This document shows positions 136 through 20,523 of a DNA stretch of 29,459 nucleotides, one piece after another (within the stretch, counting starts at the first letter, position 1; the number at the start of each line of letters is the position of its first letter). This DNA is from a virus. The position numbers and the translations under genes are program-made. Where the stretch lies: the IMG/VR virus record IMGVR_UViG_3300046003_000825, positions 1 through 29,459 of that record; one strand, written 5' to 3'. The notes beneath the pieces were generated by a model that was given only the letters and a program-made list of their open reading frames with translations, had not been told where the DNA came from and ran no database searches.

Positions 136-648
136 CTACTCGCTCTTCATGGGGGTGGACTGAACGCCATTATAGGCCACTGTCTTCGGCCTATAGATGC
201 CCACTTGTTCCGTTTCCTCGACCCAGGAAGGACCGCCGCGGACATGGAATATGCAGGAAGACATTCCGTTCCATGATTTTGTAGATGACTTGGCCGAGGT
301 GTAGGCCGATCCGAACGTAGCGTTCAGATCGTCACTGCTCATAGCCTTAACATTGGCCCAGTCGATGTCGCCCTCGTGCCACAACTTGAATCCTAGTTCC
401 AAAGGCGCGACTACCTCTGCGATGCCGGGGAAATGCCACGCCCACTCGTCGTGCGATGATGCATCGCCGCTCATCACGGCGTAGCACTGGTAGTTGCCCA
501 GCGGTACGGAGCCGCTGCCCCAGTCGCAGCTCTCGCCCGGTTTGAGGACCGCGCTCCTAGTAGGATGATCGTTGCATTTGGGCTGCTCAAAAAGAGCAAC
601 AAGGACAGGGACTTCGGTCTGATTTTCGATCTTGATGTGTGTGCTCAT
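136..648 (-). CDS. Hypothetical protein, 170 aa
   Basis: The frame continues upstream of this point, but that extension only mirrors the neighbouring gene at 668-1216, so I place the start at the ATG at 648 (MSTHIKIENQTEVPVLVAL). This leaves a 19-base spacer after the upstream stop. The leader is G-free (AACAATCAAACACCTACTAAC) and has no Shine-Dalgarno sequence. The protein is soluble, with no signal peptide or membrane segment. It is rich in Trp, Ser and Gly, and its N-terminus alternates polar and hydrophobic residues as in a beta-sandwich. I do not recognise the family. Its position after the recombination cassette and the small-gene run suggests an accessory role. Confidence 0.75.
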   Translation of the reverse strand: MSTHIKIENQTEVPVLVALFEQPKCNDHPTRSAVLKPGESCDWGSGSVPLGNYQCYAVMSGDASSHDEWAWHFPGIAEVVAPLELGFKLWHEGDIDWANVKAMSSDDLNATFGSAYTSAKSSTKSWNGMSSCIFHVRGGPSWVEETEQVGIYRPKTVAYNGVQSTPMKSE

Positions 649-6934: not shown

Positions 6935-9900
6935 TTACTCGGGGGGTTGTTGGAAGCCCCGGCGAGCGGCGACTGGCGTGAGGGTTTGGCCGGATTCTCG
7001 CAGTTCCTTGAGGAAACGGTACTTGCCGATTTCCCCACCTTTCTCGTAGGCGGATCGCAGCAATTTCAGTTTGATTTCATCGGTTCCTTGCTGGTACTGG
7101 CCGCTAGTAAAGACCCGCTCAGAAAGCCCTCTCCGGTAAAAACCAACGAGTTGAGAATACCGGTCATATTGCTCCGGATTCATCCGCTCAAAAGTTTTGT
7201 TATGAAAAGTCAGCGAAGGGTTTGGAACCGATGGAATCGCGTTGTTGTCCGCCGTCTTGCGCCAGAGGCGGTAGATCGAGGCGTTGAGAGGATCAGCCTC
7301 AATGGACCGACTTTTCCACGCATCGAAGAAATTGTAGGTCCAAGGATTCTCGCCCTTTGGCGTCTGCTCAACAGCATCTCCCCACAAATCTCGGCGCACC
7401 GGCATGGAGTTTGGATCCTTTACACCAGGGATGGCCAACCCAAGGGCGGCGTACCGCTGGTTTAGCTCGTTAATCGAATCCTTTATGAACCCTTCGCCGC
7501 CAATTGAAGGCAGGTATTCACGCTCAGCACGGCGAGCTGCACCGAGGATATTGGGAGCAAGAGGTGATGCTGCGGTAATCGAAAGGTTTTTCACAAATCG
7601 ATCCAGTGAATTCGATGACTCTTCGGACATCAGCTTGATGAAGTCGCTGGTTCCTTTAAGGAACTGCTGCTCCATGATGAAGTTGATTCCAGAAAGAGCT
7701 GCACCTTTTCCAAGCGATAGAAAATCGGGATCACTCGTCTTGGACCGCTCTTGGATTCGACGGGTTGTTCCCACCATTAACCCGATGGCTCCGCTTGTTC
7801 CAAGTGCTGACAGATCTTTCACGCTATCACCGGGCCGGAACGATGGGTCTTCTCCTTTAACTAACCGTCGAAGTGCGCTGGTGTTGATCGTGCCTGGAGG
7901 CATCACGCCACCAGCTTTGGCCAACTCGCGAGCCTTGTTGGTCTCCCCTGGAGTATCCAAATTCGGTGTAATCACACCCTTGTCGTAAAGGTAATAGTAG
8001 GCTCCTGCAACCGTGGTTCCTACGATCAATCGAGCGGTCGCCGTATTGCGCTCTTTGGGAGTCATCTTTGACCAATTCCGAAGTACACCAGCAGGGGTGA
8101 ACTGGAGGATTTCAGCGGCAACATTGATCGGTGTTTTCTGGAACAACGAGATCAACCGATACGGGATATAGAGAGGGGTTTTTTCTCTTATGAATTGATT
8201 GATTCCTGCAACGCCCTGAGTCGCAACATTGTCTTGCTGGAAGATTGAACGGGCGGCTTCGAACTCAATTTGACCAAGATCTTCGGCGGTGAATCCACGT
8301 TGGCCAGCAGCTTGAGCCTCATCGGAAATGAGCATTAACTTAGGGTTACGAGTAGCCACACGGATTTGCCCTTCCGATAAACCCCGCTGGCGACCAATCT
8401 CTGAAATTACACGGGCGCGTTCAGCCTGACGGAAAGGAACATCGGTCGCTTGAGTCATCCTAAGCATGACGTCTGGAATGACGCCTACCGTTGCTTCGAC
8501 TAGGTTGCGAATAACTGGTGTTTCCTTGTACTCGCCAGACATGGCTTCAAACAAGTTTCTCCATGCCCTCTGAAAATTAAGTGGATTTCCAATGCTTGTT
8601 CCAAGCTCATAAGGATTTCCTTCTGAACCCTTAAGCATGATACGCTTTGCTGTTGGAAGCGATTTTCCAAACGCCTCGATACGCTTAAGTGTTCGTGATC
8701 GGATGTCGTATGAGTTGTTCTTTCCTCCAGACAACGCGGAATCAATTCCCATCGCAGTAAGGTCTGCTAACTCTCTCAATGGGGCGTTGATAGTGTTTCC
8801 AAGCACGTTGCGAATAATGGAGATCGGACCCATCACAGATCCTTGAACCATCGACAAAAACAGGTCTGTTGCAGTAGATGGGTTTATGCGAGCAATCTGC
8901 TCATTTAACACAACATCAGCTTCAGATCGAAGAGCATCGGCCATGTCTGCGAGACCAGACGCAATTCTTTCTCCACGGACATCTCCTTTGTTAGCTGCAT
9001 CTGTCATCAGGATCTCAGCGCGTTTAACGGCATCAACAGCACCGCGATACTGATCTATTGAATTCCCCAGTTTAGTGGCCTGCTCAGGAGTGATCATCCT
9101 TCCACGTTCAGCCATCGATTTCGTGACCAACTGAACCACTCCTTCGCGAGATGCTGACTTCAGTAGCTTGAATTGGTTGATGAGCTGACCCCAAGTGGTT
9201 CCGCTTTCAGCCAAGGTAAGCGATAGATCCGCAGCTTCTTTGGTGCGACCTTCATTGATCAACCGGTTGAACAGTTCCATTCCCGAAGCAACGCGGGTAT
9301 TGGACTTAGCATTTCCAAGATCAGCATTAAGCTGTTCAGGGGTTGCAACCGATACTTGATCGACCACTTGTTCAACATTCTGCGGAAGATATGAAGCACG
9401 GGGCGATTTCGCTACCGATTCACGAATAACCGGAGGAACACTTGGGGAGGCGGCAACGCGCTCAGCAAATGCGCGAGGTTCCATTTTCGGAGGAGCTTGA
9501 ATTTGTGATGGTCGTTGGATTGTTCGCGTGAGTTGGTTTGCAAACTCAGCCTCATCAAAATTCTCTTTAAAGTTCTGTTGAGCGTAACGTAATCCAGCAG
9601 CAGCGGCGTCAGCAATAGATCCTCCAGCGCGGATAATTTCTTGAGCTACAGTCAATGCCCCATTCCAAGCTGAACCCATAAGCTGTGGGAACGGATTCAT
9701 ACCAAGCCCAGGTTCTACATTAGTACGAAGACCTTCGAGTTTTTCTGCAACGCCCTCGGCCTTTTGCCGGAACTTACCTTGGGTTTCTTCCAAAGATTTC
9801 TGCCAGACTTCGTTAAAAATTGTGCGTTCAGCAACAGGTAATCCAACCTCTTTACGGCCAATACCAATTGCCTTCTCAATGCTTTTCTTTGTAACCTTAG

Positions 9901-11266
9901 CCGGTTCTCCGCGAACAGCACCAGACTCCAAAGCGTCTGCAACAGCTTCAGCGGCAAGTCGTTTATCACGGGAAGCAAGTGCGCGATTTAGCTTCTCATC
10001 AACAGTTTCAAGAGCGGTGGATGTGCGAGAAGCAGTTTCCTGTTCAGCAGCGATTCGCTCGTCGCGCAATCGGAGTCGTTGAGCGAGGATATCCTCAGTT
10101 GACCTAAGCGGAGTCCCCTCTTGAACAGCAGCTTCTACTTCACGCAGGGGAAGCATTCCACCTTCAGCCGCAGCACGAGTGCCTTCTCCAATCACTTCTG
10201 GTTGATAGATGAACGGTTCATCCGGATTCATTCCGGAGATCAACTCGCGGAACTGCGTCTTAAAATCTTGAACCGGAACGATTCGATCCATCTGATCGAT
10301 GAGTCCGCCCACCTGATTGATGGCTTCTCCAACGGTCTGTTTTCGAGAAGCAAGGTTATCAAGCACATCGGCTTGAGTAACGCCTTTGCTTTTCAGTCCG
10401 AAAGACTTTCCAACTTGCGCTCCAAGACCAGCAGCAAACAGTGTTCCGATAGCAGCCTCAAACGAAGCTTTGAGTTTCTGCTCTGGAGTAGCTTCTGGAT
10501 CAGCAATGGTCTGCAACGCAACACCAGTTGACTCGGCGGCTCCTCTGGTAACCTCGGGAGCTAAGACAGCAGGAATGGCTTTTCCAACTTGTTCAGTTGC
10601 ACGAGCCGCTTCTGACGCACGAGTCAAATCCGCAATCTGTGCGGCGCGAGCGGCGGATGGAGCGGTAGATTCTGCAAACGCTTCAGTGGCGGCTGCAACC
10701 GATCTAGGAATTTGAGTGGCTTCTTTAGCAGCACCCGCAATCCCCATCGTCATCAGATTCATCGGGGAAAGAAGATCAGCAGCAACTTGGCCTGCTACTT
10801 CTCCTGCCGGACGAGTCACTGACTGCGGAATTGATCGAAGACCAGGAGTAACGATTCTCGCAATGTCAGCGGCTTTTGCACCTAGAGACGCTCCCAGTTC
10901 GCGTTTCTCAGGAGAAGCAGACAAGAGGGCCATGATGCCTTCCTTGTCGATACGGGATGCGCCTTCGAGCATTCCCTGCTTTGGTTCTCCACCAGTGACT
11001 TGCTGGAGAACTCTTCCAGCGGTTGCGACATCTTGGGGGGTTGGACCACCAAACGCCAACGGAGCGACAAGACGAGCCAATGAAGGGGCCACAGACTTGG
11101 CCTGCTCGTACAAGCTAGGAGGAGCCTGGAGAACTGGTGCATCTGGATATTTCTGTTTGCCAGCAAAAACGAAGGCCCGCTCGACATCTTCCTTTGTCGG
11201 GGGCCTGTCGCCTTCCAGCTCAAGAGTTACTCCAGTGGCATCCTGAGTGACTTCGTAGATAGGCAT
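6935..11266 (-). CDS. Giant internal virion / DNA-ejection protein, 1443 aa
   Basis: This is the largest gene. It starts MPIYEVTQDATGVTLELEGD, an opening often seen in large internal proteins of short-tailed phages, and continues through long Ala-, Glu- and Arg-rich helical regions (about 50-780). Around residues 800-840 is a hydrophobic segment, GSVMGPISIIRNVLGNTINA, then near 1028 LYIPYRLISLFQKTPINVA and near 1080 TVAGAYYYLYDKGVITP. The order of a 'NvlGN' segment, an 'F-x-x-T-P-I/V-N' segment and a hydrophobic 'G-x-x-x-A-x-Y' helix recurs in phage ejection and polyvalent proteins. It probably leaves the head with the DNA and enters the cell envelope. I see no lytic transglycosylase or polymerase motif. 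One base separates its ATG from the upstream stop (TAATATG). Confidence 0.7.
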   Translation of the reverse strand: MPIYEVTQDATGVTLELEGDRPPTKEDVERAFVFAGKQKYPDAPVLQAPPSLYEQAKSVAPSLARLVAPLAFGGPTPQDVATAGRVLQQVTGGEPKQGMLEGASRIDKEGIMALLSASPEKRELGASLGAKAADIARIVTPGLRSIPQSVTRPAGEVAGQVAADLLSPMNLMTMGIAGAAKEATQIPRSVAAATEAFAESTAPSAARAAQIADLTRASEAARATEQVGKAIPAVLAPEVTRGAAESTGVALQTIADPEATPEQKLKASFEAAIGTLFAAGLGAQVGKSFGLKSKGVTQADVLDNLASRKQTVGEAINQVGGLIDQMDRIVPVQDFKTQFRELISGMNPDEPFIYQPEVIGEGTRAAAEGGMLPLREVEAAVQEGTPLRSTEDILAQRLRLRDERIAAEQETASRTSTALETVDEKLNRALASRDKRLAAEAVADALESGAVRGEPAKVTKKSIEKAIGIGRKEVGLPVAERTIFNEVWQKSLEETQGKFRQKAEGVAEKLEGLRTNVEPGLGMNPFPQLMGSAWNGALTVAQEIIRAGGSIADAAAAGLRYAQQNFKENFDEAEFANQLTRTIQRPSQIQAPPKMEPRAFAERVAASPSVPPVIRESVAKSPRASYLPQNVEQVVDQVSVATPEQLNADLGNAKSNTRVASGMELFNRLINEGRTKEAADLSLTLAESGTTWGQLINQFKLLKSASREGVVQLVTKSMAERGRMITPEQATKLGNSIDQYRGAVDAVKRAEILMTDAANKGDVRGERIASGLADMADALRSEADVVLNEQIARINPSTATDLFLSMVQGSVMGPISIIRNVLGNTINAPLRELADLTAMGIDSALSGGKNNSYDIRSRTLKRIEAFGKSLPTAKRIMLKGSEGNPYELGTSIGNPLNFQRAWRNLFEAMSGEYKETPVIRNLVEATVGVIPDVMLRMTQATDVPFRQAERARVISEIGRQRGLSEGQIRVATRNPKLMLISDEAQAAGQRGFTAEDLGQIEFEAARSIFQQDNVATQGVAGINQFIREKTPLYIPYRLISLFQKTPINVAAEILQFTPAGVLRNWSKMTPKERNTATARLIVGTTVAGAYYYLYDKGVITPNLDTPGETNKARELAKAGGVMPPGTINTSALRRLVKGEDPSFRPGDSVKDLSALGTSGAIGLMVGTTRRIQERSKTSDPDFLSLGKGAALSGINFIMEQQFLKGTSDFIKLMSEESSNSLDRFVKNLSITAASPLAPNILGAARRAEREYLPSIGGEGFIKDSINELNQRYAALGLAIPGVKDPNSMPVRRDLWGDAVEQTPKGENPWTYNFFDAWKSRSIEADPLNASIYRLWRKTADNNAIPSVPNPSLTFHNKTFERMNPEQYDRYSQLVGFYRRGLSERVFTSGQYQQGTDEIKLKLLRSAYEKGGEIGKYRFLKELRESGQTLTPVAARRGFQQPPE

Positions 11267-13589: not shown

Positions 13590-15023
13590 TCAGTTTTTGG
13601 GGATTATGCTGTTGATTCGAGCCATCATCCAGTTGGCCACAAGCTTCTTGACCTTAGGCTTGTTCTTGAGCCACTTCGCAAACTTCTCGGCGTTGCTGTC
13701 GTAGAAGCTCTTGAACCACTTCGGTCCAACGAGTTCCTTCCAGAAGTAGAACGCCTCCCACTGATCGGGGATACACTCACGAGCGACAAAGCATCCGCCA
13801 AGCCCGAAGCCCGCGTAGGATGATCCAAGGTTACCAATCGCACCAGCATACCCCTTGAACTGATTCATGAAGGAGTTCGCTTGATCGGATGTGTATTGGT
13901 TCTGAGCGTTTGTGAGCGCAAAGTTACTACCCATCTTCATCAGGTCTCCAGGGCTAGATAGCTGGGCACCCTGAATTAACTGAGGAGTCATAAACGGAGA
14001 GGCACCCTGCTGAAGACCACCTAGTTGGGCGGCTTGGGATGAGACCGGTTGGAGTCCTAGGGCGGACTGGACGTTGGCAATGTTCTGCTGGCGACCGGAC
14101 AGCATCTGCTGCTGCGAAGCCATCTGGCCTGCAAAGCTCTGTTGCGCCGCGGTGTTCCGCTGGCCGGTGGCCGCGAGGATGTTCTGGAAGGCTTCCTGTG
14201 CGTTTCGATTGGCAGTATCGCTCGTGCTTTGACCGCTCTGAAGCAAGCCCATTGCAGCGTTCCAGCGTTGAGAATTGGCGTTACCAAGAGCATCTTGAAT
14301 TGCGAGCGACTCACGAAGAGCCGAAGGATTGCCAAGAACATTGCCAATGGAACTACCGCGAGCGCGAGCAGCCTGTTGGACTCGTCGCTCCATGCTTGGA
14401 TCCAGAGTACCAACCTGAGAAAGACCCTGTTGGATCTGACGTTCAAGCTCGCTACGGATCAACTGAGAAGCCCCGGTATCCTGTTGGGCACCGGGCATCC
14501 CAACCCTCTCGTAGGTGGGAGAATCTATCCGCGTATCCGGAGCGGCGGCATCACCCTTAACATCGCTGAGGAATTGCTCGTAGAGATCGAACTTCCGAGG
14601 ATCAAGAGCCTCCAGCTCGTTTCGACGTTGTTGGGCAAACTGCGTTCCATACAGCCTTGCAACATCAAGTTGTTCTTTAGCTAAAGGATCTGCAAGTTTT
14701 GATAAAGCAAGAGCTGTTTGCTTGGTGATATCAACATCACCAATGCCTGTAAAATCGTATGTTCTTTTGGCACCTTCTGGACCGTATTTAATTTCAGTGC
14801 CAGATCTAGCGGCTTGTTCTAATGCACGAATGAAAGGATATTGCTCGGCCTGAGCTTTTATCGCTTCGGCAGTAGAGGCAGCAAGGTCCGGCGGTTTGTA
14901 ACTTGGGCCGCACATTTGCGGCTGACCCCAAGGAATGCAGGAGTAATCTTTAGCCCAGTCATCTTTGGCAAACAGCATTACGCTGTGAGCTAGAACCCTT
15001 GATGTATTAAAATCTATATTCAT
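13590..15023 (-). CDS. Virion/ejection-associated protein with a C-terminal CFIATA-like domain, 477 aa
   Basis: The protein starts MNIDFNTSRVLAHSVMLFAK. Residues 60-400 are rich in Gln, Ala and Ser and helical (for example QNIANVQSALGLQPVSSQ), which is common in phage internal virion proteins. The last 70 residues form a distinct domain starting GCFVARECIPDQWEAFYFWK and continuing with FKSFYDSNAEKFAKWLK and LVANWMMARI. This resembles the C-terminal 'CFIATA' motif found at the end of many bacterial and phage proteins (C-F-I/V-A, then W/F-x-E, Y-Y/F-x-x-S, and a final hydrophobic helix); the comparison is by eye. The ATG overlaps the upstream stop as ATGA, with AAGGAGG upstream. A location in the virion is inferred from neighbours. 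Confidence 0.75.
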   Translation of the reverse strand: MNIDFNTSRVLAHSVMLFAKDDWAKDYSCIPWGQPQMCGPSYKPPDLAASTAEAIKAQAEQYPFIRALEQAARSGTEIKYGPEGAKRTYDFTGIGDVDITKQTALALSKLADPLAKEQLDVARLYGTQFAQQRRNELEALDPRKFDLYEQFLSDVKGDAAAPDTRIDSPTYERVGMPGAQQDTGASQLIRSELERQIQQGLSQVGTLDPSMERRVQQAARARGSSIGNVLGNPSALRESLAIQDALGNANSQRWNAAMGLLQSGQSTSDTANRNAQEAFQNILAATGQRNTAAQQSFAGQMASQQQMLSGRQQNIANVQSALGLQPVSSQAAQLGGLQQGASPFMTPQLIQGAQLSSPGDLMKMGSNFALTNAQNQYTSDQANSFMNQFKGYAGAIGNLGSSYAGFGLGGCFVARECIPDQWEAFYFWKELVGPKWFKSFYDSNAEKFAKWLKNKPKVKKLVANWMMARINSIIPKN

Positions 15024-15382
15024 ACTCCTCCTTCAAAAATCTCGGTTTTCCAAATGGGATTATATCCAAACTTCTTCATATATGAGTTGTATGGACTATT
15101 CTCATTGCAAGCTATGAAATACTTAGGAAAACCTTTTGTCTCCATAATAGAGTCATATACACGTTTAAGGTGCATACTGTCTCTGGCAGACACTTTTTCG
15201 GTGTGATTCCAAAGAAGCAGGACAGGCACCCTTCCAAAAGATGACGCACCAATGATCTCGCCATCTCTTTCAACCACATGGGTTGGGTGAATGATCGAGT
15301 CGTTGTTTGCCCGCGCAGCTTGAAGAGCTTGAGACTCTTGCTCAAGCGTTTGTATCATTCGTACTCTCGGGAAGGCGTTCAT
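15020..15382 (-). CDS. GNAT-acetyltransferase-like protein, 120 aa
   Basis: The central part reads HVVERDGEIIGASSFGR, a typical strand-turn-strand of GNAT proteins, and the C-terminus reads NSPYNSYMKKFGYNPIWKTE, like the usual GNAT end where a conserved Asn/Ser pair precedes a 'K-x-G-F/Y' turn. The acetyl-CoA-binding Q/R-x-x-G-x-G/A loop is not present in recognisable form, so this may be a GNAT fold without acetylation activity. The gene lies between the nozzle-like gene and a large internal protein and overlaps both by 4 bases, so its product is likely made with them and may be a virion or assembly factor. Length is near the minimum for the fold. Confidence 0.6.
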   Translation of the reverse strand: MNAFPRVRMIQTLEQESQALQAARANNDSIIHPTHVVERDGEIIGASSFGRVPVLLLWNHTEKVSARDSMHLKRVYDSIMETKGFPKYFIACNENSPYNSYMKKFGYNPIWKTEIFEGGV

Positions 15383-17337
15383 TGTTGGGGTCTGACCGAA
15401 TCGACGAATCCGGAGAGAATGGTGGATTGTAGAGACAAGCGACCAGCGTCTGCGGTTACCTTGAATTGCAAAGTATTCCAGCGGCCTTGGCTTATCAGGT
15501 TGTAAGCCTTCAGGAACTTCTGGCTTGAGGTGATCGCCAGCGCGGAATCGAGCGTAACGAATGTGTCCGACATATCTTTGGCCAACGACACTGCGGCGGT
15601 CGTGGTGGCGGTAGTGTACGGGTTATCGAAGGCGAACTGAACGCTGTACCCGATCTTGTCGGGAATGGGTTCGTTGAGGTTGTAAGCCTTAGTTATAACC
15701 GTGGATTCGTAATTCGCACCGCCATCGGTGTACGCGGAGCTTGAGACCGGCGACAACCGGCTGTTTGGGAGGTAATCGTTGAATGACCAGACCTGGCCCG
15801 CTCCCGCTGATACCGAGACGATATCGCCGGCAAACATGAGGACGGGTCCAAATGTTGAGAATGAGGTTGGAATGAAGTCGTTTACGATCCAGTTGTCCCA
15901 ATAACCAAGCCAAGAGCGGGCCAGTGAGTGGTAGACGATGACCGCGTTGTTCTCGTTGAGCGCACCTTCGAGGGCGATATTGAGGCTGTTCTCGGTCAGG
16001 AGCGCGTACTCGGTTTCGATTCCGAGGATCGCTGGTTCCTCGGCAACGAACGGAACAGCCAACAGATAGCGGTTGTTCCAGAATACACCGTCGCAGAGAT
16101 CGAGCTTGGTCTTGTCGATGCGACTGATGAGGTCGTTGATCGGGCTGGAGAGCGCGAGACCTACGCTAGTCTGGGTACCGGCTTGGATCTGCTGGAGAGA
16201 TCGGATGCCGTCGCGGGAGAAGAAGAATACGTCAGGACCAACCGCGGTAATGGACCGGTGCGATGAGCAGCCGATATTGCCGCTGATGAGTGATATGGTC
16301 CAATCGGCAGCATCCTGCGTAGGATCGGCATTTACGCTCCAAATAGAGCGTTCCTTGAAGACGATGAGTTGATAACCAAACCAAGAGTAGAGTCCCTTGA
16401 TGGGATCGCCATCGCCACCGATACGAAGAGACCCGAGAGGATCCCAGGATTCGCCATCGAGGATATCCGAGAAGTAGAGGGTATCGGGCTGGATGGATGT
16501 ATCCGCGGAAACTGCGAACAACCGATTGGTATGGGTGGTGAGAAAGATCGGCTTGGCAGGAGGTGTGAGCGATACAAAAGCTACAGCGTGAGATTGATTT
16601 GCTGGCGAAACACTAACGGTTGGAGCGGTGACATAACCGCTGCCGGGATCGGTGATCGTTATGAATACGAGATTACCATCGTTGGCAACAACAGCGGTTG
16701 CCGTAGCCGTGATTCCGCTGGGAGGCGCGGAGATGGTTATTGTGGGGACAGAGTTATGATTCGATCCCTGCCTGATGATATCGATGCGGCTGATCTTGCC
16801 GGCTGTAGTGGAGCTGTTGAGGTTCGCGCTTGAGACGTACTTCAGCGTTCCTAAACCGTCCGAATAAAACAATTTGTCATTTAATTGCGCAAAATAGACG
16901 TAGGAAGCGGCAGCGTTGAGCGTTGATCCCGAAATCAGGTTGTAGGAAACGCCGGGTGACCCGTAGTAGAGGCTCTTGGTGGAGGTGCTAAGGTCATTAA
17001 CAGCGATGACGAGGCGTTCGGATGCGGCTGTATCGAAGTAAAAGCCGGACAATACCGTCGCGTTGATGGGAAGATTGCTGCCGAAGTTGGAAGTCGTTGA
17101 CTCCCAGTTGGTGATGATGTCTTCCCAGTTGGCGGTGATGCTGTTGCCTGCCAGTGAAACAGCTCCTAGACGAGTGACGAGATTACCGAAGTCGTCATAA
17201 TCCATGTTGATGGCCGATTCCATGCTGGTTGCAGGAATGCCATCGGGACGAGTGGCTGAAATTACGCCGGTCGAAAACCCAGTGCTTCCATCCAGAAGCA
17301 TCTGGTCATCGAGAGCATCTGAGGATTGGAATGGCAT
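15379..17337 (-). CDS. Tail nozzle / stabilisation-like protein, 652 aa
   Basis: The protein starts MPFQSSDALDDQMLLDGSTG. The central part resembles the beta-propeller proteins that form the lower tail of short-tailed phages (P22 gp10 and T7 gp12 types). The best segment runs PDTLYFSDILDGESWDP, GDGDPIKGLYSWFGYQLIVF, KERSIWSVNADP, SRDGIRSLQQI. There is also a TITDPGSGYVTAPTVSVSPA element, a small repeat domain found in several virion surface proteins. It follows the adaptor gene by 6 bases and precedes internal protein genes, as expected of tail assembly. The exact equivalence to gp10 or gp12 is not settled by eye. Confidence 0.75.
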   Translation of the reverse strand: MPFQSSDALDDQMLLDGSTGFSTGVISATRPDGIPATSMESAINMDYDDFGNLVTRLGAVSLAGNSITANWEDIITNWESTTSNFGSNLPINATVLSGFYFDTAASERLVIAVNDLSTSTKSLYYGSPGVSYNLISGSTLNAAASYVYFAQLNDKLFYSDGLGTLKYVSSANLNSSTTAGKISRIDIIRQGSNHNSVPTITISAPPSGITATATAVVANDGNLVFITITDPGSGYVTAPTVSVSPANQSHAVAFVSLTPPAKPIFLTTHTNRLFAVSADTSIQPDTLYFSDILDGESWDPLGSLRIGGDGDPIKGLYSWFGYQLIVFKERSIWSVNADPTQDAADWTISLISGNIGCSSHRSITAVGPDVFFFSRDGIRSLQQIQAGTQTSVGLALSSPINDLISRIDKTKLDLCDGVFWNNRYLLAVPFVAEEPAILGIETEYALLTENSLNIALEGALNENNAVIVYHSLARSWLGYWDNWIVNDFIPTSFSTFGPVLMFAGDIVSVSAGAGQVWSFNDYLPNSRLSPVSSSAYTDGGANYESTVITKAYNLNEPIPDKIGYSVQFAFDNPYTTATTTAAVSLAKDMSDTFVTLDSALAITSSQKFLKAYNLISQGRWNTLQFKVTADAGRLSLQSTILSGFVDSVRPQQ

Positions 17338-17343
17338 GGCGGA

Positions 17344-18105
17344 TTACAGGATGTCTTGGAACGTGTAATCGTACAAGCTATCTGGGATGATGCGGCTGAT
17401 TTGCTGTTGTTGGCCGCGTTCCATGTCTTTCATGATGGAGACCTGAGCGGCTCCTTCTTGGAACTTGGCTTGGGCTTTACCGTACTGCCGGGAGTATTCG
17501 AGGAGATCGCCTTCAGTGTAGGCCATTAGAGCGTTCTCTACGCCTCGCAGCTCGAAGTTGGTATCGTTGGAGATGGTGACCGCCTCACCGAACTGCCGCA
17601 TCTGCGACTGTTTCTTGGCGAGGATGAACAGGGTGCCATCGGCATTGGGCGTGGGAACGAGCTTGATGCGGGGAACGCCGGCCTCGCCATAAGCTCCACC
17701 GATCAATCGAGTCCAGTTAACGAAGTTGCCGGGGGTGGATTTACGGCTATCGACGTTGTTCCAGGTGTTGGGATCGAGCTGGAAGAACGAGACCCATTCC
17801 GCGGCGGGAACCTCGATGCCATCGGTATCTCCGGTGACCGTGAAGCGGATGGCTACGGGGAAATCGATGAAGGTGTTGTAACCGGTACCTGAAGCGTAAG
17901 CGGATGCGACGTAATCCGAGAGAGTGATCATCTCATCGCCGGCGGTGACCGGATGAGAGATAATGCCGAGGGTATCGTTCCACAGGCAGGAATCCCAGAT
18001 CATCGAGTAGCGGCGGATACAGAACTTCTTGGCCAACGCGATGGTGGCCGAGTCTGTGAACGACAGCTTGTCGCAAGCCGCCTGAGCCGCTTCGGAGGGT
18101 TTCAT
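17344..18105 (-). CDS. Tail adaptor / head-tail connector-like protein, 253 aa
   Basis: The protein starts MKPSEAAQAACDKLSFTDSA and is mostly beta-rich, with a helical end reading ALMAYTEGDLLEYSRQYGKA, then FQEGAAQVSIMKDMERGQQQ, then RIIPD. In adaptor proteins of short-tailed phages (T7 gp11 and P22 gp4 types, which sit on the portal and carry the tail) a similar final helix with L-E-x-x-R-Q-Y-G-K-A-Q and E-G-A-A is common. It is followed directly by the nozzle-like gene, which matches the order adaptor then nozzle. The ATG overlaps the upstream fibre stop as ATGA. The family call is from the C-terminal pattern and synteny. Confidence 0.7.
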   Translation of the reverse strand: MKPSEAAQAACDKLSFTDSATIALAKKFCIRRYSMIWDSCLWNDTLGIISHPVTAGDEMITLSDYVASAYASGTGYNTFIDFPVAIRFTVTGDTDGIEVPAAEWVSFFQLDPNTWNNVDSRKSTPGNFVNWTRLIGGAYGEAGVPRIKLVPTPNADGTLFILAKKQSQMRQFGEAVTISNDTNFELRGVENALMAYTEGDLLEYSRQYGKAQAKFQEGAAQVSIMKDMERGQQQQISRIIPDSLYDYTFQDIL

Positions 18106-19364
18106 GCGAAGTATTCTTGCAAGGTCATTGAGGAACTGACTCGGGCAGCGGAAGATGAGTTTACCCCTGCAACCACATCTGCATAGGTCTTGTTAACCCA
18201 CATTGACGGGAACGTAGCACCAGTTGCATACAAATGGATCCTGTAAGTAACAGCAGATGCAGATGCTGGTGAATCAAGAATCTGGATAAACTGATTACTA
18301 AAGAATTCAGAGCTATAAGAAGCACCAAGTCCAGTGAACGGAGCAATACCGTACAAGCTGGAACCAACATTGTTAGACCCAATCTCTACGTTGTTACGAG
18401 TAACTCTGAATGCTGCAAACTGAGGATTGTTTATGGTAGTATAGTTTATAGCTATAGAAACCAACACCGTTGAAGCTATAGACCTAGGAGTAATCGATGT
18501 GGTAAGCACTGTTACTTCAGTGCCAGATCCAGTACTTGTAGCAACGAACGGACTTGCACCAGCGGTGGAGTCTTGATATAGAGTCTGTTTTACTTGAGGG
18601 GCAAAATATGTTCCGGCAACCACCTTAACCTTGCTGGAATCGCTTGCGTCAGTGATCAGCACCTTGTCGGTGGTAAAATCAACGACAACAGGGGTTAGGT
18701 TAGGAACCGTGATGTTGTCCGAGTTGAGGATCAACGTGTCGGTGCCGGCATTGCCCAACGTGGTGTTTCCGTTGGCTGCAAGATCACCGGCTAGCGTGGT
18801 CGCACCGGTCACCCCGAGGGTCGTTCCTACAGTAGCCGCTCCCGTAACAACAGCACTGGCCAACGTAGAGACTCCCGTGACTCCGAGGGTTGTCCCAACG
18901 GTAGCGGCTCCGGTCACGCCAACGCTTGCTAGTGTGCTTGCTCCGGTTACCCCGAGGGTGCCTGTAACAGCGGTGGCACCGGTCAGTGTGGAAGTTCCAG
19001 TGACCGCAAGGTTTCCTGGTACCGTGAGATTGCCGGTGAGCGTGGTTGCTCCGGTAACATTGAGCGCACCGCCTATGGTCGCTGCACCGCTCGTAGCGAG
19101 GCTTGAAAGGTTGGTAGCCCCGGTGACGGCCAAAGTACCCGCAATGGCCGTGTTGCCGCTTGCAGAGGCCACTGTGAGCTTGTTAGTGGCTACACTGAAG
19201 TCTCCGGTGGTATTGACTGCGGCGTTGGAGACTTGGAGTGCGGAGTCATTGCCACTGCCGTCGCTGATGGCTTTGAGCGATGCGCCTACGGTGGAGTTGT
19301 CGGAGTTCTTGAGTAGGCCAGTGTAGGTTGATGCAACGCTACTGCCTGTGAGTGGTGTTCCCAT
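18102..19364 (-). CDS. Tail fibre / appendage protein with GVTG repeats, 420 aa
   Basis: The protein starts MGTPLTGSSVASTYTGLLKN. Residues 75-195 are built from short units of the type GVTGASTLAS and TGAATVGTTL, as in trimeric fibre shafts. The C-terminal 190 residues are rich in Ser, Thr and Tyr and form a probable receptor-binding head (FTGLGASYSSEFFSNQFIQI). The 14-residue block TGAATVGTTLGVTG occurs twice, 23 residues apart, and once more in the second fibre gene at 20528-21487. The protein probably trimerises on the outside of the tail and contributes to host recognition. The stop overlaps the adaptor start as ATGA. Its position between the lysis-like cassette and the adaptor is unusual but not unique. 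Confidence 0.8.
   Translation of the reverse strand: MGTPLTGSSVASTYTGLLKNSDNSTVGASLKAISDGSGNDSALQVSNAAVNTTGDFSVATNKLTVASASGNTAIAGTLAVTGATNLSSLATSGAATIGGALNVTGATTLTGNLTVPGNLAVTGTSTLTGATAVTGTLGVTGASTLASVGVTGAATVGTTLGVTGVSTLASAVVTGAATVGTTLGVTGATTLAGDLAANGNTTLGNAGTDTLILNSDNITVPNLTPVVVDFTTDKVLITDASDSSKVKVVAGTYFAPQVKQTLYQDSTAGASPFVATSTGSGTEVTVLTTSITPRSIASTVLVSIAINYTTINNPQFAAFRVTRNNVEIGSNNVGSSLYGIAPFTGLGASYSSEFFSNQFIQILDSPASASAVTYRIHLYATGATFPSMWVNKTYADVVAGVNSSSAARVSSSMTLQEYFA
18780..19142. repeat. Fibre-shaft coding repeats (GVTG-type units)
   Basis: The region encodes about ten related short units (T-G-A-x-T-L/V-x-x-x-L-x-V pattern). Two copies of TGAATVGTTLGVTG at 18873-18914 and 18804-18845 are identical in protein but differ at 10 of 42 bases, all of them third codon positions. 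A third copy lies in the other fibre at 21236-21277. Confidence 0.85.
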
Positions 19365-19365
19365 A

Positions 19366-19596
19366 TCAGTTCTTCGGTAAAACGTACCAACCTGCCGGCA
19401 ATACCACCTTAGATGGCCCCACCAGCTTCTTATCTTTGTCGAATCCGTAGACGCTGGCCGTTGTAGGCTTGGCCAGCATCACCGGATCACCGCTTGGCAC
19501 CAGGACTACCCTGGTCATCTGGCAACCCAGGCAGGTCAGCAATGCGGTCAGCCAGATCGTTCTTGAGATCATCGGGAGCTTTGCCGTGTTGAACAT
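19366..19596 (-). CDS. Small lipoprotein-like protein, probable lysis factor (outer spanin-like), 76 aa
   Basis: The N-terminus reads MISRTIWLTALLTCLGCQMT from an internal Met at 19572. This is a basic start, a hydrophobic stretch and a Cys after L-G, close to a lipobox, though the -3 position is Cys instead of the usual Leu. The first Met at 19596 adds eight residues, and which one is used is unclear. The mature part (VVLVPSGDPVMLAKPTTASV, then GPSKVVLPAGWYVLP) matches a small lipoprotein pattern often found in phage lysis regions. It overlaps the 57-residue gene by 110 bases in another frame, as Rz1 overlaps Rz. A role in outer-membrane disruption is inferred from position and layout. Confidence 0.65.
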   Translation of the reverse strand: MFNTAKLPMISRTIWLTALLTCLGCQMTRVVLVPSGDPVMLAKPTTASVYGFDKDKKLVGPSKVVLPAGWYVLPKN

Positions 19597-19660
19597 CGGT
19601 GGGTGGTGTTTCGCGGAGCCAGTCGAGCAGGGCCTTGAGGATCTGGTAGATCCAGTTCAC
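19487..19660 (-). CDS. Small helical protein nested with the lipoprotein gene (inner spanin-like position), 57 aa
   Basis: The GTG at 19660 overlaps the stop of the 63-residue membrane protein as GTGA. The product is (M)NWIYQILKALLDWLRETPP followed by a polar tail with DDLKNDLADRIADLPG. The N-terminus is an amphipathic to hydrophobic helix and the rest is charged. Similar short 'N-W-I-x-x-I-L-K-A-L-x-D-W-L' proteins appear in phage lysis regions. It lies out of frame with the lipoprotein gene, whose first ATG falls within it. No full transmembrane helix is obvious, so a true inner spanin is uncertain. Confidence 0.65.
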   Translation of the reverse strand: MNWIYQILKALLDWLRETPPTDVQHGKAPDDLKNDLADRIADLPGLPDDQGSPGAKR

Positions 19661-19848
19661 GGCTTAGGGGCTTCGGCTTCCTTGGCATCCTTGGCCCAGA
19701 TCAAGCCAATGCCAGCGGTGACCGCGGCGATAGTGGTAGTCAGGTCGAGGTTGGTTGTCGGGTCACCGTCGAACAGGGCCTTGAGAGCCCCACCAACAGC
19801 AACGAGAATGGCACCGACACCGGCAAGAGTTGTTTTCGTGTTTTTCAT
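19657..19848 (-). CDS. Holin-like small membrane protein, 63 aa
   Basis: The start is the ATG at 19848 (MKNTKTTLAGVGAILVAVGG), overlapping the upstream stop as ATGA. There are two hydrophobic segments (LAGVGAILVAVGGALKAL near 8-25, and TTIAAVTAGIGLIWA near 39-53) separated by a short polar loop with DGDPTTN, ending in a charged tail. This pattern is common among small phage membrane proteins near lysis genes and fits a two-helix holin. The longer frame upstream mirrors the next gene. Function is inferred; pore formation cannot be read from sequence alone. Confidence 0.7.
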   Translation of the reverse strand: MKNTKTTLAGVGAILVAVGGALKALFDGDPTTNLDLTTTIAAVTAGIGLIWAKDAKEAEAPKP

Positions 19849-20015
19849 TTGGATTTGAACAGCCTGTAGGCTCCGTAGATGGCGCAGGCTAAGCCAATGA
19901 GCGCGGTGATAAGCTGAACCCAGTCGGTAAGCCACGGAATAAACGAAACAGCGGTGGCACCTGCCGCTGCTGCTAGGCTGAGTCCAGGGCTGGTGCTGCT
20001 GTTCGTTGGTTCCAT
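19845..20015 (-). CDS. Small membrane protein, possible holin or antiholin partner, 56 aa
   Basis: The ATG at 20015 overlaps the upstream stop (TAATG), and the stop overlaps the next start as ATGA. The product begins MEPTNSSTSPGLSLAAAAGA and has a hydrophobic helix near 32-48 (WVQLITALIGLACAIYGAY) followed by RLFKSK. A second weakly hydrophobic stretch lies near 12-28. With the 63-residue neighbour it forms two consecutive membrane-protein genes next to the lipoprotein-like gene, as in many phage lysis cassettes. Confidence 0.7.
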   Translation of the reverse strand: MEPTNSSTSPGLSLAAAAGATAVSFIPWLTDWVQLITALIGLACAIYGAYRLFKSK

Positions 20016-20275
20016 TACTCAGTAGGCTGGACGGCTTCAACCACCGGATTAGCCGCTTTGTAAGCCTCCACAACCGCCGGAGTCCACAGCGCATTGGCGA
20101 TATTCACAACCTCGGTCGGCTGTCCTTCCAGCGAATCACCGGGATTCAGCGTATACTGCGAGGTAATCTCACTGCCAACAACCGCGCCATCGCTGTCGTA
20201 ATCAATTCCAGTCGTGACGAACAGCGAGTTGTTCTGGTTTACCTGCACTGCGACAATATCAACTGGTACGATCAT
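20015..20275 (-). CDS. Small hypothetical protein, 86 aa, tandem paralogue A
   Basis: The protein starts MIVPVDIVAVQVNQNNSLFV and ends in a conserved block: NPGDSLEGQPTEVVNIANAL followed by WTPAVVEAY. The neighbouring 83-residue gene ends with HPGDDLAGQPEQVVAIANAV and WTPAAVAAY, so the two are tandem duplicates that have diverged in their N-terminal halves. There are no membrane segments. They lie between a fibre gene and the membrane-protein genes, so they might be fibre-associated or lysis-associated. I do not recognise the family. Confidence 0.75.
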   Translation of the reverse strand: MIVPVDIVAVQVNQNNSLFVTTGIDYDSDGAVVGSEITSQYTLNPGDSLEGQPTEVVNIANALWTPAVVEAYKAANPVVEAVQPTE

Positions 20276-20523
20276 TGGATGGTGGGGCTAGGGGTTTGAG
20301 CGGCGGCGTAGGCTGCGACAGCGGCAGGAGTCCAGACAGCGTTGGCAATCGCGACAACCTGCTCGGGCTGACCAGCGAGGTCATCACCGGGATGCAAGCA
20401 GTAGCGGCGGAAGGTGGAGGCTTTGACAACCTCGCCATCGACGATCTGATCCGACAGGCGAACCTGAAGCGTTGTGTTGGGAAGAACCTCGCAAAGCGAG
20501 AAAATGGTGCGTTCTGTTAGCAT
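20272..20523 (-). CDS. Small hypothetical protein, 83 aa, tandem paralogue B
   Basis: The protein starts MLTERTIFSLCEVLPNTTLQ and shares the C-terminal GQPxxVVxIANAxWTPAxV core with the 86-residue downstream neighbour. Its N-terminal half (LCEVLPNTTLQVRLSDQIVD) differs from the other copy. The stop overlaps the next start as ATGA. The pair looks like a recent tandem duplication kept in the genome. Function is not recognised. Confidence 0.75.
   Translation of the reverse strand: MLTERTIFSLCEVLPNTTLQVRLSDQIVDGEVVKASTFRRYCLHPGDDLAGQPEQVVAIANAVWTPAAVAAYAAAQTPSPTIQ

What the first reader, a model, noticed from the sequence alone, without database searches (positions are those of the whole stretch)
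19366..20015. Compact four-gene lysis-like cassette with an out-of-frame overlapping pair and no endolysin
Two small membrane proteins, a helical 57-residue protein and a lipoprotein-like protein are linked by 4-base overlaps. The last pair overlaps by 110 bases in different frames, as in Rz/Rz1. The lipobox is imperfect (Cys at -3). No endolysin was recognised in the window, so the muralytic activity may be elsewhere or novel.
Basis: partly seen in the sequence, partly recalled or inferred. Interest (0 to 1): 0.55.

Follow-up and report, generated by a model that had tools for sequence, protein, structure and literature searches.

The report
Mobile overlapping-gene phage lysis cassette
A compact set of four small phage genes, two of them written in overlapping reading frames, looks like a cell-bursting module that otherwise unrelated phages swap among themselves; its lipoprotein matched no known protein family, its partner is not the usual membrane protein, and the cell-wall-cutting enzyme of this phage could not be found.

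Summary
On the minus strand tm56 (20015-19845), tm63 (19848-19657), h57 (19660-19487) and lipo76 (19596-19366) are joined by two 4-base overlaps and one 110-base out-of-frame overlap. In 66 distinct close copies both overlapping frames are open, and each gene's private part is under purifying selection (pN/pS 0.18). Relatives of the lipoprotein (invariant Cys, predicted beta-hairpin) are common in IMG/VR. In three independent distant loci, one a green-sulfur-bacterium phage, the lipoprotein ORF lies 0.3-0.5 kb downstream of an M15-peptidase or amidase gene; in a related cassette a Pam3-gp28 holin fills the tm63 slot. 'Lysis cassette' is therefore well supported. 'Rz/Rz1' is only partly so: h57 has no transmembrane segment in 56 of 56 close variants. 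The cassette travels: lipo76 reaches 92% identity between phages with unrelated head genes but only 31-41% to three members of the window's own lineage. A near-identical circular genome supplies the 6.8 kb missing from the window; no endolysin was recognised there. A lysozyme-like gene is present in 7 of 7 carriers outside the lineage and 0 of 11 inside it.

The parts
19845..20015 (-). tm56: 56-aa protein with a hydrophobic segment, first gene of the cassette; holin/antiholin-position protein (role inferred)
   Evidence: KD max19 1.72; tm56-like sequence (39-100% identity) at this place in 18 of 18 cassette-bearing genomes; no family match over a cut-off
19657..19848 (-). tm63: 63-aa hydrophobic protein; holin-slot protein (role inferred)
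   Evidence: KD max19 2.03; tm63-type in 15 of 18 genomes, Pam3-gp28-type instead in 3 of 18 by similarity to the L120 protein, which matches Pfam PF23987 at E 2.6e-16
19487..19660 (-). h57: 57-aa protein with amphipathic N-terminal helix and no transmembrane segment, GTG start; partner of the lipoprotein
   Evidence: pN/pS 0.18 outside the overlap; KD max19 0.01, helical moment 0.61; h57 profile finds the partner ORF beside distant lipoproteins in 7 of 13 loci
19366..19596 (-). lipo76: small lipoprotein, signal peptide plus Cys25, 52-residue mature part, predicted beta-hairpin, GWYxLP end
   Evidence: Cys invariant in 31 aligned homologues; pN/pS 0.18 outside the overlap; AF2 34 residues with pLDDT 90 or more, pTM 0.44
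19487..19596 (-). 110-base dual-coding overlap of h57 and lipo76 (lipo76 in another frame)
   Evidence: both frames open in 66 of 66 unique close copies; both frames constrained relative to wrong-frame controls
20015..20275 (-). 86-aa gene upstream (PHROG 6228, unknown function), often carried along with the cassette
   Evidence: found in 7 of 17 other genomes, 84-95% identical
20272..20523 (-). 83-aa gene of the same PHROG 6228
   Evidence: found in 7 of 17 other genomes, 84-93% identical
18102..19364 (-). 420-aa repeat-rich gene directly downstream, tail-fibre-like by its repeats (reading by eye)

Best explanation
The four genes are the lysis (host-envelope-opening) cassette of a phage with a short-tailed-phage-like gene order, carried among the tail genes and exchanged as a unit between otherwise unrelated phages. 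Shown: the genes, their overlaps, purifying selection on both overlapping frames, conservation of the pair, its linkage to endolysin genes in distant relatives, and a recognised holin in the tm63 slot of another carrier. Inferred: tm56 and tm63 accumulate in the inner membrane and act as holin/antiholin or pinholin. lipo76 is exported, lipidated on Cys25 and sits on the outer membrane as an o-spanin-like element. h57, held at the inner membrane only by an amphipathic helix or released through the holin lesions, works with lipo76 to break the outer membrane once the wall is gone. The wall-cutting enzyme is encoded elsewhere, as in T7 (recalled). In other carriers it is probably the small lysozyme-like protein; in the window's lineage it is unidentified.
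For: Dual-coding selection. In 18 of 18 larger genomes, chosen by me by length (8 fetched through the capsid, 10 through the lipoprotein), an ORF of at least 45 aa ends inside the lipoprotein gene in the same relative frame. An h57 profile run on 2410 ORFs of 13 distant loci has as its top 7 hits the ORF beside, or the N-terminal half of, the lipoprotein ORF in 7 loci; the last three are not significant alone. Distant lipoprotein homologues (E 1.3e-8 to 2e-7 in L266-L270 and L276) sit by endolysin genes: L270 holin-like / Amidase_3 E 3.3e-16 / small TM protein / 73 aa / lipo; L269 M15_4 E 1.6e-4 (below cut-off) / 52 aa / 74 aa / lipo; L266 M15_4 E 3.1e-10 / 102 aa / 73 aa / lipo. Chlorobiaceae phage CV-1-33 (L276) is the same stretch as L266 by its printed proteins: gene33 with a Peptidase_M15_4 note, genes 32 and 31, then an unannotated overlapping lipo ORF. 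Holin PF23987 in the tm63 slot of L120. Canonical lipoboxes in some distant homologues (LAGC, LSGC, VAGC, ISAC). T7 has tail fibre, holin 17.5, gene 18, then 18.5/18.7 in that order.
Against: No functional data. tm56, tm63, h57 and lipo76 match no family model over a cut-off. h57 is not a membrane-spanning protein. The 73-74 aa partner in L266-L270 and L276 is not detected by the h57 profile. The window h57 itself is not found by tblastn in G005, G006 and G013; there the pair rests on position and on the profile's own members. L267 and L268, of the same order, have no endolysin ORF between the holin-like and TM genes. The L270 holin-like protein matches ECF_trnsprt (E 3.2e-4) better than LydA holin (E 0.0022), both below cut-off. 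No endolysin recognised in the window's lineage. Degenerate lipobox in the window group. The L172 and L173 copies lie among what read by eye as head or tail genes, with no holin or endolysin recognised beside them.
Confidence: 0.64

Rival explanations
1. A canonical two-component spanin of the Rz/Rz1 type: h57 is the i-spanin, lipo76 the o-spanin, bridging the periplasm.
For: Out-of-frame overlap, lipoprotein with invariant Cys, lysis-gene neighbourhood in relatives. Combined length (52 plus about 38-57 residues) lies inside the published 62-300 residue range (PMC6139136 section 8).
Against: h57 has no transmembrane segment: 56 unique close variants have KD max19 from -0.06 to 0.48, against 2.63 for lambda Rz, 1.35 for T7 18.5 and 0.04 for soluble lambda R. 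Some distant h57-like proteins are more hydrophobic (L043 1.37, the L173 N-terminal part 2.51). In the one-frame versions (L172, L173) a lipoprotein signal in N-in orientation would leave the h57-like part on the cytoplasmic side (inference).
Confidence: 0.2
2. The lipoprotein pair is a superinfection-exclusion or receptor-shielding module that travels with the tail-fibre genes, in the manner of the T5 lipoprotein Llp (recalled).
For: It neighbours tail-fibre-like genes in the window and in the three other genomes looked at, is horizontally exchanged, and contains a small lipoprotein.
Against: It lies by endolysin genes in three independent distant loci. A tm56-like gene precedes it in 18 of 18 genomes. 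This rival does not explain the conserved overlap with h57.
Confidence: 0.13
3. The missing endolysin is simply a diverged enzyme of an ordinary kind that profile searches do not reach; nothing about lysis is unusual in the window's lineage.
For: The lysozyme-like protein of other carriers scores only 17-21 bits against Pfam SLT, and the one copy that was in the whole-gene-set Pfam scan (L163:4212-4646) was not reported there at E <= 1e-5, so weak enzymes are easily overlooked.
Against: Single-family searches found nothing in the lineage: M15_4, Amidase_2, SLT, Amidase_3 (0 of 11 each at E <= 0.001), GH108, M15_3, Phage_lysozyme (0 of 11 each at E <= 0.1). A profile of the other carriers' lysozymes gave only chance-level scores in the lineage (best E 2.4, G012). 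Only seven families were tried this way.
Confidence: 0.6
4. The window's lineage lyses without a wall-cutting enzyme: one of the small cassette proteins blocks wall synthesis, as single-gene lysis proteins of small phages do (recalled).
For: No muralytic gene recognised in 11 genomes of the lineage, six of them with end repeats suggesting complete circles, while 7 of 7 other carriers of the cassette have a lysozyme-like gene.
Against: The same cassette co-exists with a lysozyme-like gene in the other lineages, so it need not replace one; tailed dsDNA phages nearly always encode an endolysin (recalled).
Confidence: 0.08

Closest known systems
Two-component spanins: lambda Rz/Rz1, T7 18.5/18.7, P2 LysB/LysC
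   Same: Small lipoprotein gene overlapping its partner out of frame, at the lysis genes; in T7 likewise downstream of tail fibre and holin, with lysozyme elsewhere in the genome (recalled)
   Different: The partner h57 has no N-terminal transmembrane segment and is much shorter (57 aa against 153 for Rz and 143 for 18.5); the lipoprotein has a conserved predicted beta-hairpin and GWYxLP end; two distant copies read as one frame
Unimolecular spanins (T1 gp11)
   Same: One open frame holding both parts in L172 and L173; a 2025 survey states that Bacteroidetes phages exclusively use this type (PMC12596118, passage)
   Different: Order reversed: the lipobox is internal, after the N-terminal helix, not at the N terminus with a C-terminal transmembrane segment
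Pam3 gp28-family holin (Pfam PF23987)
   Same: Occupies the tm63 slot in 3 of 18 genomes (one protein tested against Pfam, the others by similarity to it)
   Different: The window's own tm63 does not match the family
phiKT disruptin (recalled; only the listing of a paper that mentions it was seen)
   Same: A peptide of similar size proposed to break the outer membrane without spanins
   Different: h57 is acidic (net -3), not cationic, and is paired with a lipoprotein
Lysis region of Chlorobiaceae phage CV-1-33 (MT192033.1)
   Same: Homologous lipoprotein ORF overlapping a 73-aa gene, downstream of an M15_4 peptidase gene
   Different: Lipoprotein ORF not annotated in the record; the 73-aa partner is not detected by the h57 profile

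Membership tests
Two-component spanin (Rz/Rz1 type) | o-spanin is a lipoprotein with a signal-peptidase-II lipobox | tested here: met
   Cys invariant in 31 homologues; canonical lipobox in some distant members, degenerate CLGC in the window. Met for the family by sequence, weak for the window copy
Two-component spanin (Rz/Rz1 type) | i-spanin is a type II inner-membrane protein with an N-terminal transmembrane domain | tested here: not met
   56 unique close h57 variants, KD max19 -0.06 to 0.48; controls lambda Rz 2.63, T7 18.5 1.35, lambda R 0.04, T7 gp18 0.86
Two-component spanin (Rz/Rz1 type) | The two genes are embedded, overlapped or closely adjacent | tested here: met
   110-base overlap; 66 of 66 unique close cassettes and 18 of 18 larger genomes
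Two-component spanin (Rz/Rz1 type) | Association with holin and endolysin genes | tested here: inconclusive
   Met in three independent distant loci and holin in another carrier; no endolysin recognised in the window's lineage
Two-component spanin (Rz/Rz1 type) | Required for outer-membrane disruption | not testable with these tools
   Needs a lysis assay
Unimolecular spanin | N-terminal lipobox and C-terminal transmembrane domain in one protein | tested here: not met
   The window pair is two ORFs; in the one-frame L172 and L173 ORFs the lipobox is internal and no C-terminal hydrophobic segment is seen, read by eye
Holin, Pam3 gp28 family (PF23987) | Profile match over the curated cut-off | tested here: not met
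   Window tm56 and tm63 do not match it (E <= 0.1); the L120 protein in the same slot does, E 2.6e-16
Cationic antimicrobial lysis peptide (disruptin-like) | Net positive charge | tested here: not met
   Window h57 net charge -3
Superinfection-exclusion lipoprotein | Blocks infection when expressed | not testable with these tools
   No experimental system

The most novel reading that the evidence does not exclude
A distinct outer-membrane-breaking system, not a bridging spanin: a small beta-hairpin lipoprotein that works with a peripheral amphipathic partner encoded in the overlapping frame. It is spread over phages and phage-like regions in genomes of two bacterial phyla, sometimes as one continuous frame, and is passed as a cassette between unrelated phages. 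In the window's lineage it operates with a wall-cutting enzyme of a new kind, or with none.
Probability: 0.3. Interest if true: 0.75.

Novelty: new variant of a known kind. Interest (0 to 1): 0.57.

Why it matters
How phages breach the outer membrane of Bacteroidota and Verrucomicrobiota hosts is little known (recalled); one recent survey concluded that Bacteroidetes phages use only single-protein spanins (PMC12596118, passage). Here is a lipoprotein family whose overlapping ORF is missed even in a deposited phage record, with a partner that breaks the topology rule used to define spanins; filters that demand a transmembrane i-spanin would discard it. The cassette's exchange between phages with unrelated heads may mark shared hosts, and the contrast between lineages with and without a lysozyme-like gene turns the missing enzyme into a defined, testable problem.

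Tried and rejected
Family searches gave nothing for h57 or lipo76 in Pfam, PHROGs or NCBIfam, nor in Pfam for the L266, L270 and L271 lipoproteins. Sequence and fold searches of the PDB with the lipoprotein gave nothing significant; the viral fold library gave one match at E <= 0.001, an uncharacterised uncultured phage protein at 54% identity (TM 0.46-0.55). Phage-record searches with the window lipo76 and with the L043 form gave no match; the window tm63 gave none; the capsid gave only 9 distant unannotated records. A model of the one-frame L172 ORF (pLDDT 75, pTM 0.33) was too weak to use.

The PHROG label 'amidase' on the 652-aa gene at 15379-17337 (phrog_5107, E 5e-12) and 'tail lysozyme' (phrog_1922, E 0.0067) were not taken as the endolysin: the same protein matches 15 families, mostly tail, connector and head, and a homologue is found in all 11 lineage genomes and in 5 of 7 others. 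This is a reading, not a proof. The 1443-aa and 229-aa genes gave no muralytic match to solved proteins.

One search did not report the lysozyme-like protein L163:4212-4646 that was among its members and that a single-family search found later, so the 'none' is weak on its own.

The cationic-peptide idea for h57 was rejected on charge. 

Full report
WHAT IS THERE. The window is a 29,459-base virus record with matches to terminase, portal and capsid, RecT, exonuclease VIII and helicase families. Two 4-base overlaps couple tm56, tm63 and h57; h57 and lipo76 share 110 bases in different frames.

THE OVERLAP IS REAL CODING. From the loci held I took every copy with the close-group lipoprotein motif: 100 cassettes, 66 distinct over the 295 bases of h57 plus lipo76, the window's included. 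All 66 have both ORFs open: 60 in the identical layout, 5 shifted by one codon, and 1 (L011) with h57 two codons shorter. On the 60, pooled pairwise pN/pS is 0.18 in the h57-only part and 0.18 in the lipo-only part. In the overlap it is 0.48 in the h57 frame, 0.81 in the lipo frame and 2.1 in the third frame; wrong frames in single-coding DNA give 1.4-1.9. So both frames are constrained inside the overlap, the lipoprotein's less so there. All 60 have GTG at the h57 start. At the window's lipo76 start, 50 of 60 have ATG and 10 have ATA or ACA; these must start later.

THE LIPOPROTEIN FAMILY. In bacterial genomes the profile finds 2 contigs of the species collection, titled Bacteroidales and Kiritimatiellae MAGs, 5 of 387 genomes of the phylum of the Kiritimatiellae genome and 5 of 296 of the phylum of the Bacteroidales genome, each count including the starting genome. 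Cys25 is invariant over 31 aligned homologues. The window's lipobox is poor (CLGC), but some distant members have canonical ones: LAGC, LSGC, VAGC, ISAC. AlphaFold gives a mature domain with mean pLDDT 93-94 over residues 41-70 (pTM of the whole 0.44) that is essentially a beta-hairpin. No solved structure matches significantly.

THE PARTNER. The window's h57 is not a membrane-spanning protein: hydropathy maximum 0.01, with a strongly amphipathic N-terminal helix. Over 56 unique close variants the maximum ranges from -0.06 to 0.48, while lambda Rz scores 2.63, T7 18.5 1.35, soluble lambda R 0.04 and T7 gp18 0.86. Some distant h57-like proteins are more hydrophobic (up to 1.37 in L043), and the N-terminal part of L173 reaches 2.51. 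A profile of h57, run on 2410 ORFs of 13 distant loci, has as its seven best hits the ORFs next to or in one frame with the lipoprotein: L272, L275, L271 and L273 (E 7.6e-7 to 2.4e-4), L274 (0.02), and the N-terminal halves of L172 (0.096) and L173 (1.8). The last three are not significant alone and count by rank. In the other six loci (L266-L270, L276) it does not find the 73-74 aa partners. In L172 and L173 the two parts read as one frame; internal TTG codons could serve as starts, so one protein or two cannot be decided from sequence.

WHY LYSIS. First, endolysin neighbours. Chlorobiaceae phage CV-1-33 has gene33 (record note: Peptidase_M15_4), gene32, gene31 (73 aa), then a 78-aa lipoprotein ORF overlapping gene31 that the record does not annotate. 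Contig L266 has the same proteins, and there the peptidase matches M15_4 at E 3.1e-10. L270 has a 103-aa holin-like gene (ECF_trnsprt E 3.2e-4, LydA holin E 0.0022, both below cut-off), Amidase_3 (E 3.3e-16), a small membrane protein, 73 aa, then the lipoprotein overlapping the 73-aa gene. L269 is the same with M15_4 (E 1.6e-4, below cut-off). L267 and L268 have the order without an endolysin in between. Second, a holin: in L120 (genome G009) the tm63 slot holds a Pam3-gp28 holin (PF23987, E 2.6e-16). Among 18 larger genomes the slot is tm63-type in 15 and like the L120 protein in 3, and a tm56-like gene precedes it in all 18. Third, T7 has tail fibre, holin, gene 18 and spanin pair in that order.

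A TRAVELLING CASSETTE. The 18 genomes were picked by length, 8 fetched through the capsid and 10 through the lipoprotein; all 18 carry the lipoprotein. Eleven share the window's terminase and portal (G001-G006, G010, G012, G013, G015, G018). The other seven (G007, G008, G009, G011, G014, G016, G017) do not, apart from a 24% portal match in G011. G008, G011, G014 and G016 share several large genes with G009; G007 shares none of G009's genes of 250 aa or more and G017 two. Lipoprotein identity ignores this: G012-G014 92%, G010-G011 92% and G018-G011 92% across lineages, against 35%, 31% and 41% between G001 and its lineage mates G005, G006 and G013. At DNA level the only matches over 500 bases between the window and G011 or G007 fall in the cassette and its upstream neighbours: 1167 bases at 86% and a second 580-base piece at 82% in G011, 1598 bases at 82% in G007.

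THE ENDOLYSIN QUESTION. G001 is 99.97-100% identical to the window and its ends overlap (window 14652-14827 lies at both ends), giving a circle of about 36.3 kb; it supplies the 6.8 kb the window lacks. No muralytic family appears in 57 entries of this genome (Pfam, E <= 0.01) or in 50 PHROG scans of its ORFs, apart from a tail-protein match carrying 'amidase' and 'tail lysozyme' labels that I do not credit. Such scans are not sensitive to weak members. Searched one family at a time, M15_4, Amidase_2 and Amidase_3 give 0 of 18 genomes; GH108, M15_3 and Phage_lysozyme give 0 of 11 in the lineage. SLT gives 7 of 18, one over its cut-off. The matched proteins are about 111-115 aa from their likely start; the G011 copy matches a solved lysozyme (8bbu, E 4.4e-8). 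A profile of four of them (from G007, G009 and G011) finds one in 7 of 7 carriers outside the window's lineage and none above chance in the 11 within it; six of those 11 have end repeats suggesting completeness, the others may be fragments. So the other carriers probably have their endolysin there, away from the cassette, and the window's lineage has lost or replaced it with something not recognised here.

WHAT IT WORKS LIKE AND WHAT IT IS. It works like a lysis cassette with an o-spanin-like lipoprotein. It is not filed as an Rz/Rz1 spanin, because the transmembrane inner-membrane subunit that defines the i-spanin was tested and not met. Published spanin surveys ask for that feature (PMC6139136, sections 8 and 15 read; PMC12596118, passages), so such pairs would be filtered out; the first survey itself says that its criteria do not cover other topologies. 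Two further papers were seen in passages only (PMC8776804; PMC8163819) and neither describes this pair there. The searches listed no paper on such a pair as far as titles and abstract starts show; only open-licence papers are held, so that is a limited statement.

Noticed in passing
window 136-648 (-): A 170-aa protein of unknown family is 96-98% identical in five other genomes (G002, G008, G010, G011, G015) of two unrelated lineages and not found in the other twelve; another recently exchanged gene.
   Followed up: partly
L163:4212-4646, L158:18440-18775, L165:11322-11666, L166:16223-16693: Small lysozyme-like proteins of other carriers; near a RuvC-like resolvase gene in 4 of the 6 places looked at; G007 carries two different copies.
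   Followed up: partly
L276 5956-6192 (MT192033.1, Chlorobiaceae phage CV-1-33): An overlapping lipoprotein ORF is missing from the deposited annotation.
   Followed up: yes
L272 and L273 (reverse strand), L271, L275: h57-like plus lipoprotein pairs near contig ends of bacterial genomes; L272, L273 and L275 are followed by a conserved 81-aa sequence, and one genome (G329) has two copies. Possibly prophage remnants or a domesticated lysis unit.
   Followed up: no
window 6935-11266 (-): A 1443-aa gene at the end of the structural operon has a tblastn match in only three other genomes of the lineage (G005, G006, G018; 53-90% identity) and seems replaced elsewhere.
   Followed up: no
L158 1-577 (G011): The start of contig G011 carries part of a second cassette copy about 87% identical to the one near its other end; strain mixture, misassembly or duplication.
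   Followed up: no
window 15379-17337 (-): A core structural protein draws a PHROG 'amidase' label (E 5e-12) together with many tail and head families; the label looks spilled over from a fused family member.
   Followed up: partly
L171 1417-2106 (+): A 229-aa gene matches only positions 299-519 of a 529-position PHROG of unknown function (phrog_2554, E 7e-61), in a plus-strand block of the genome.
   Followed up: no
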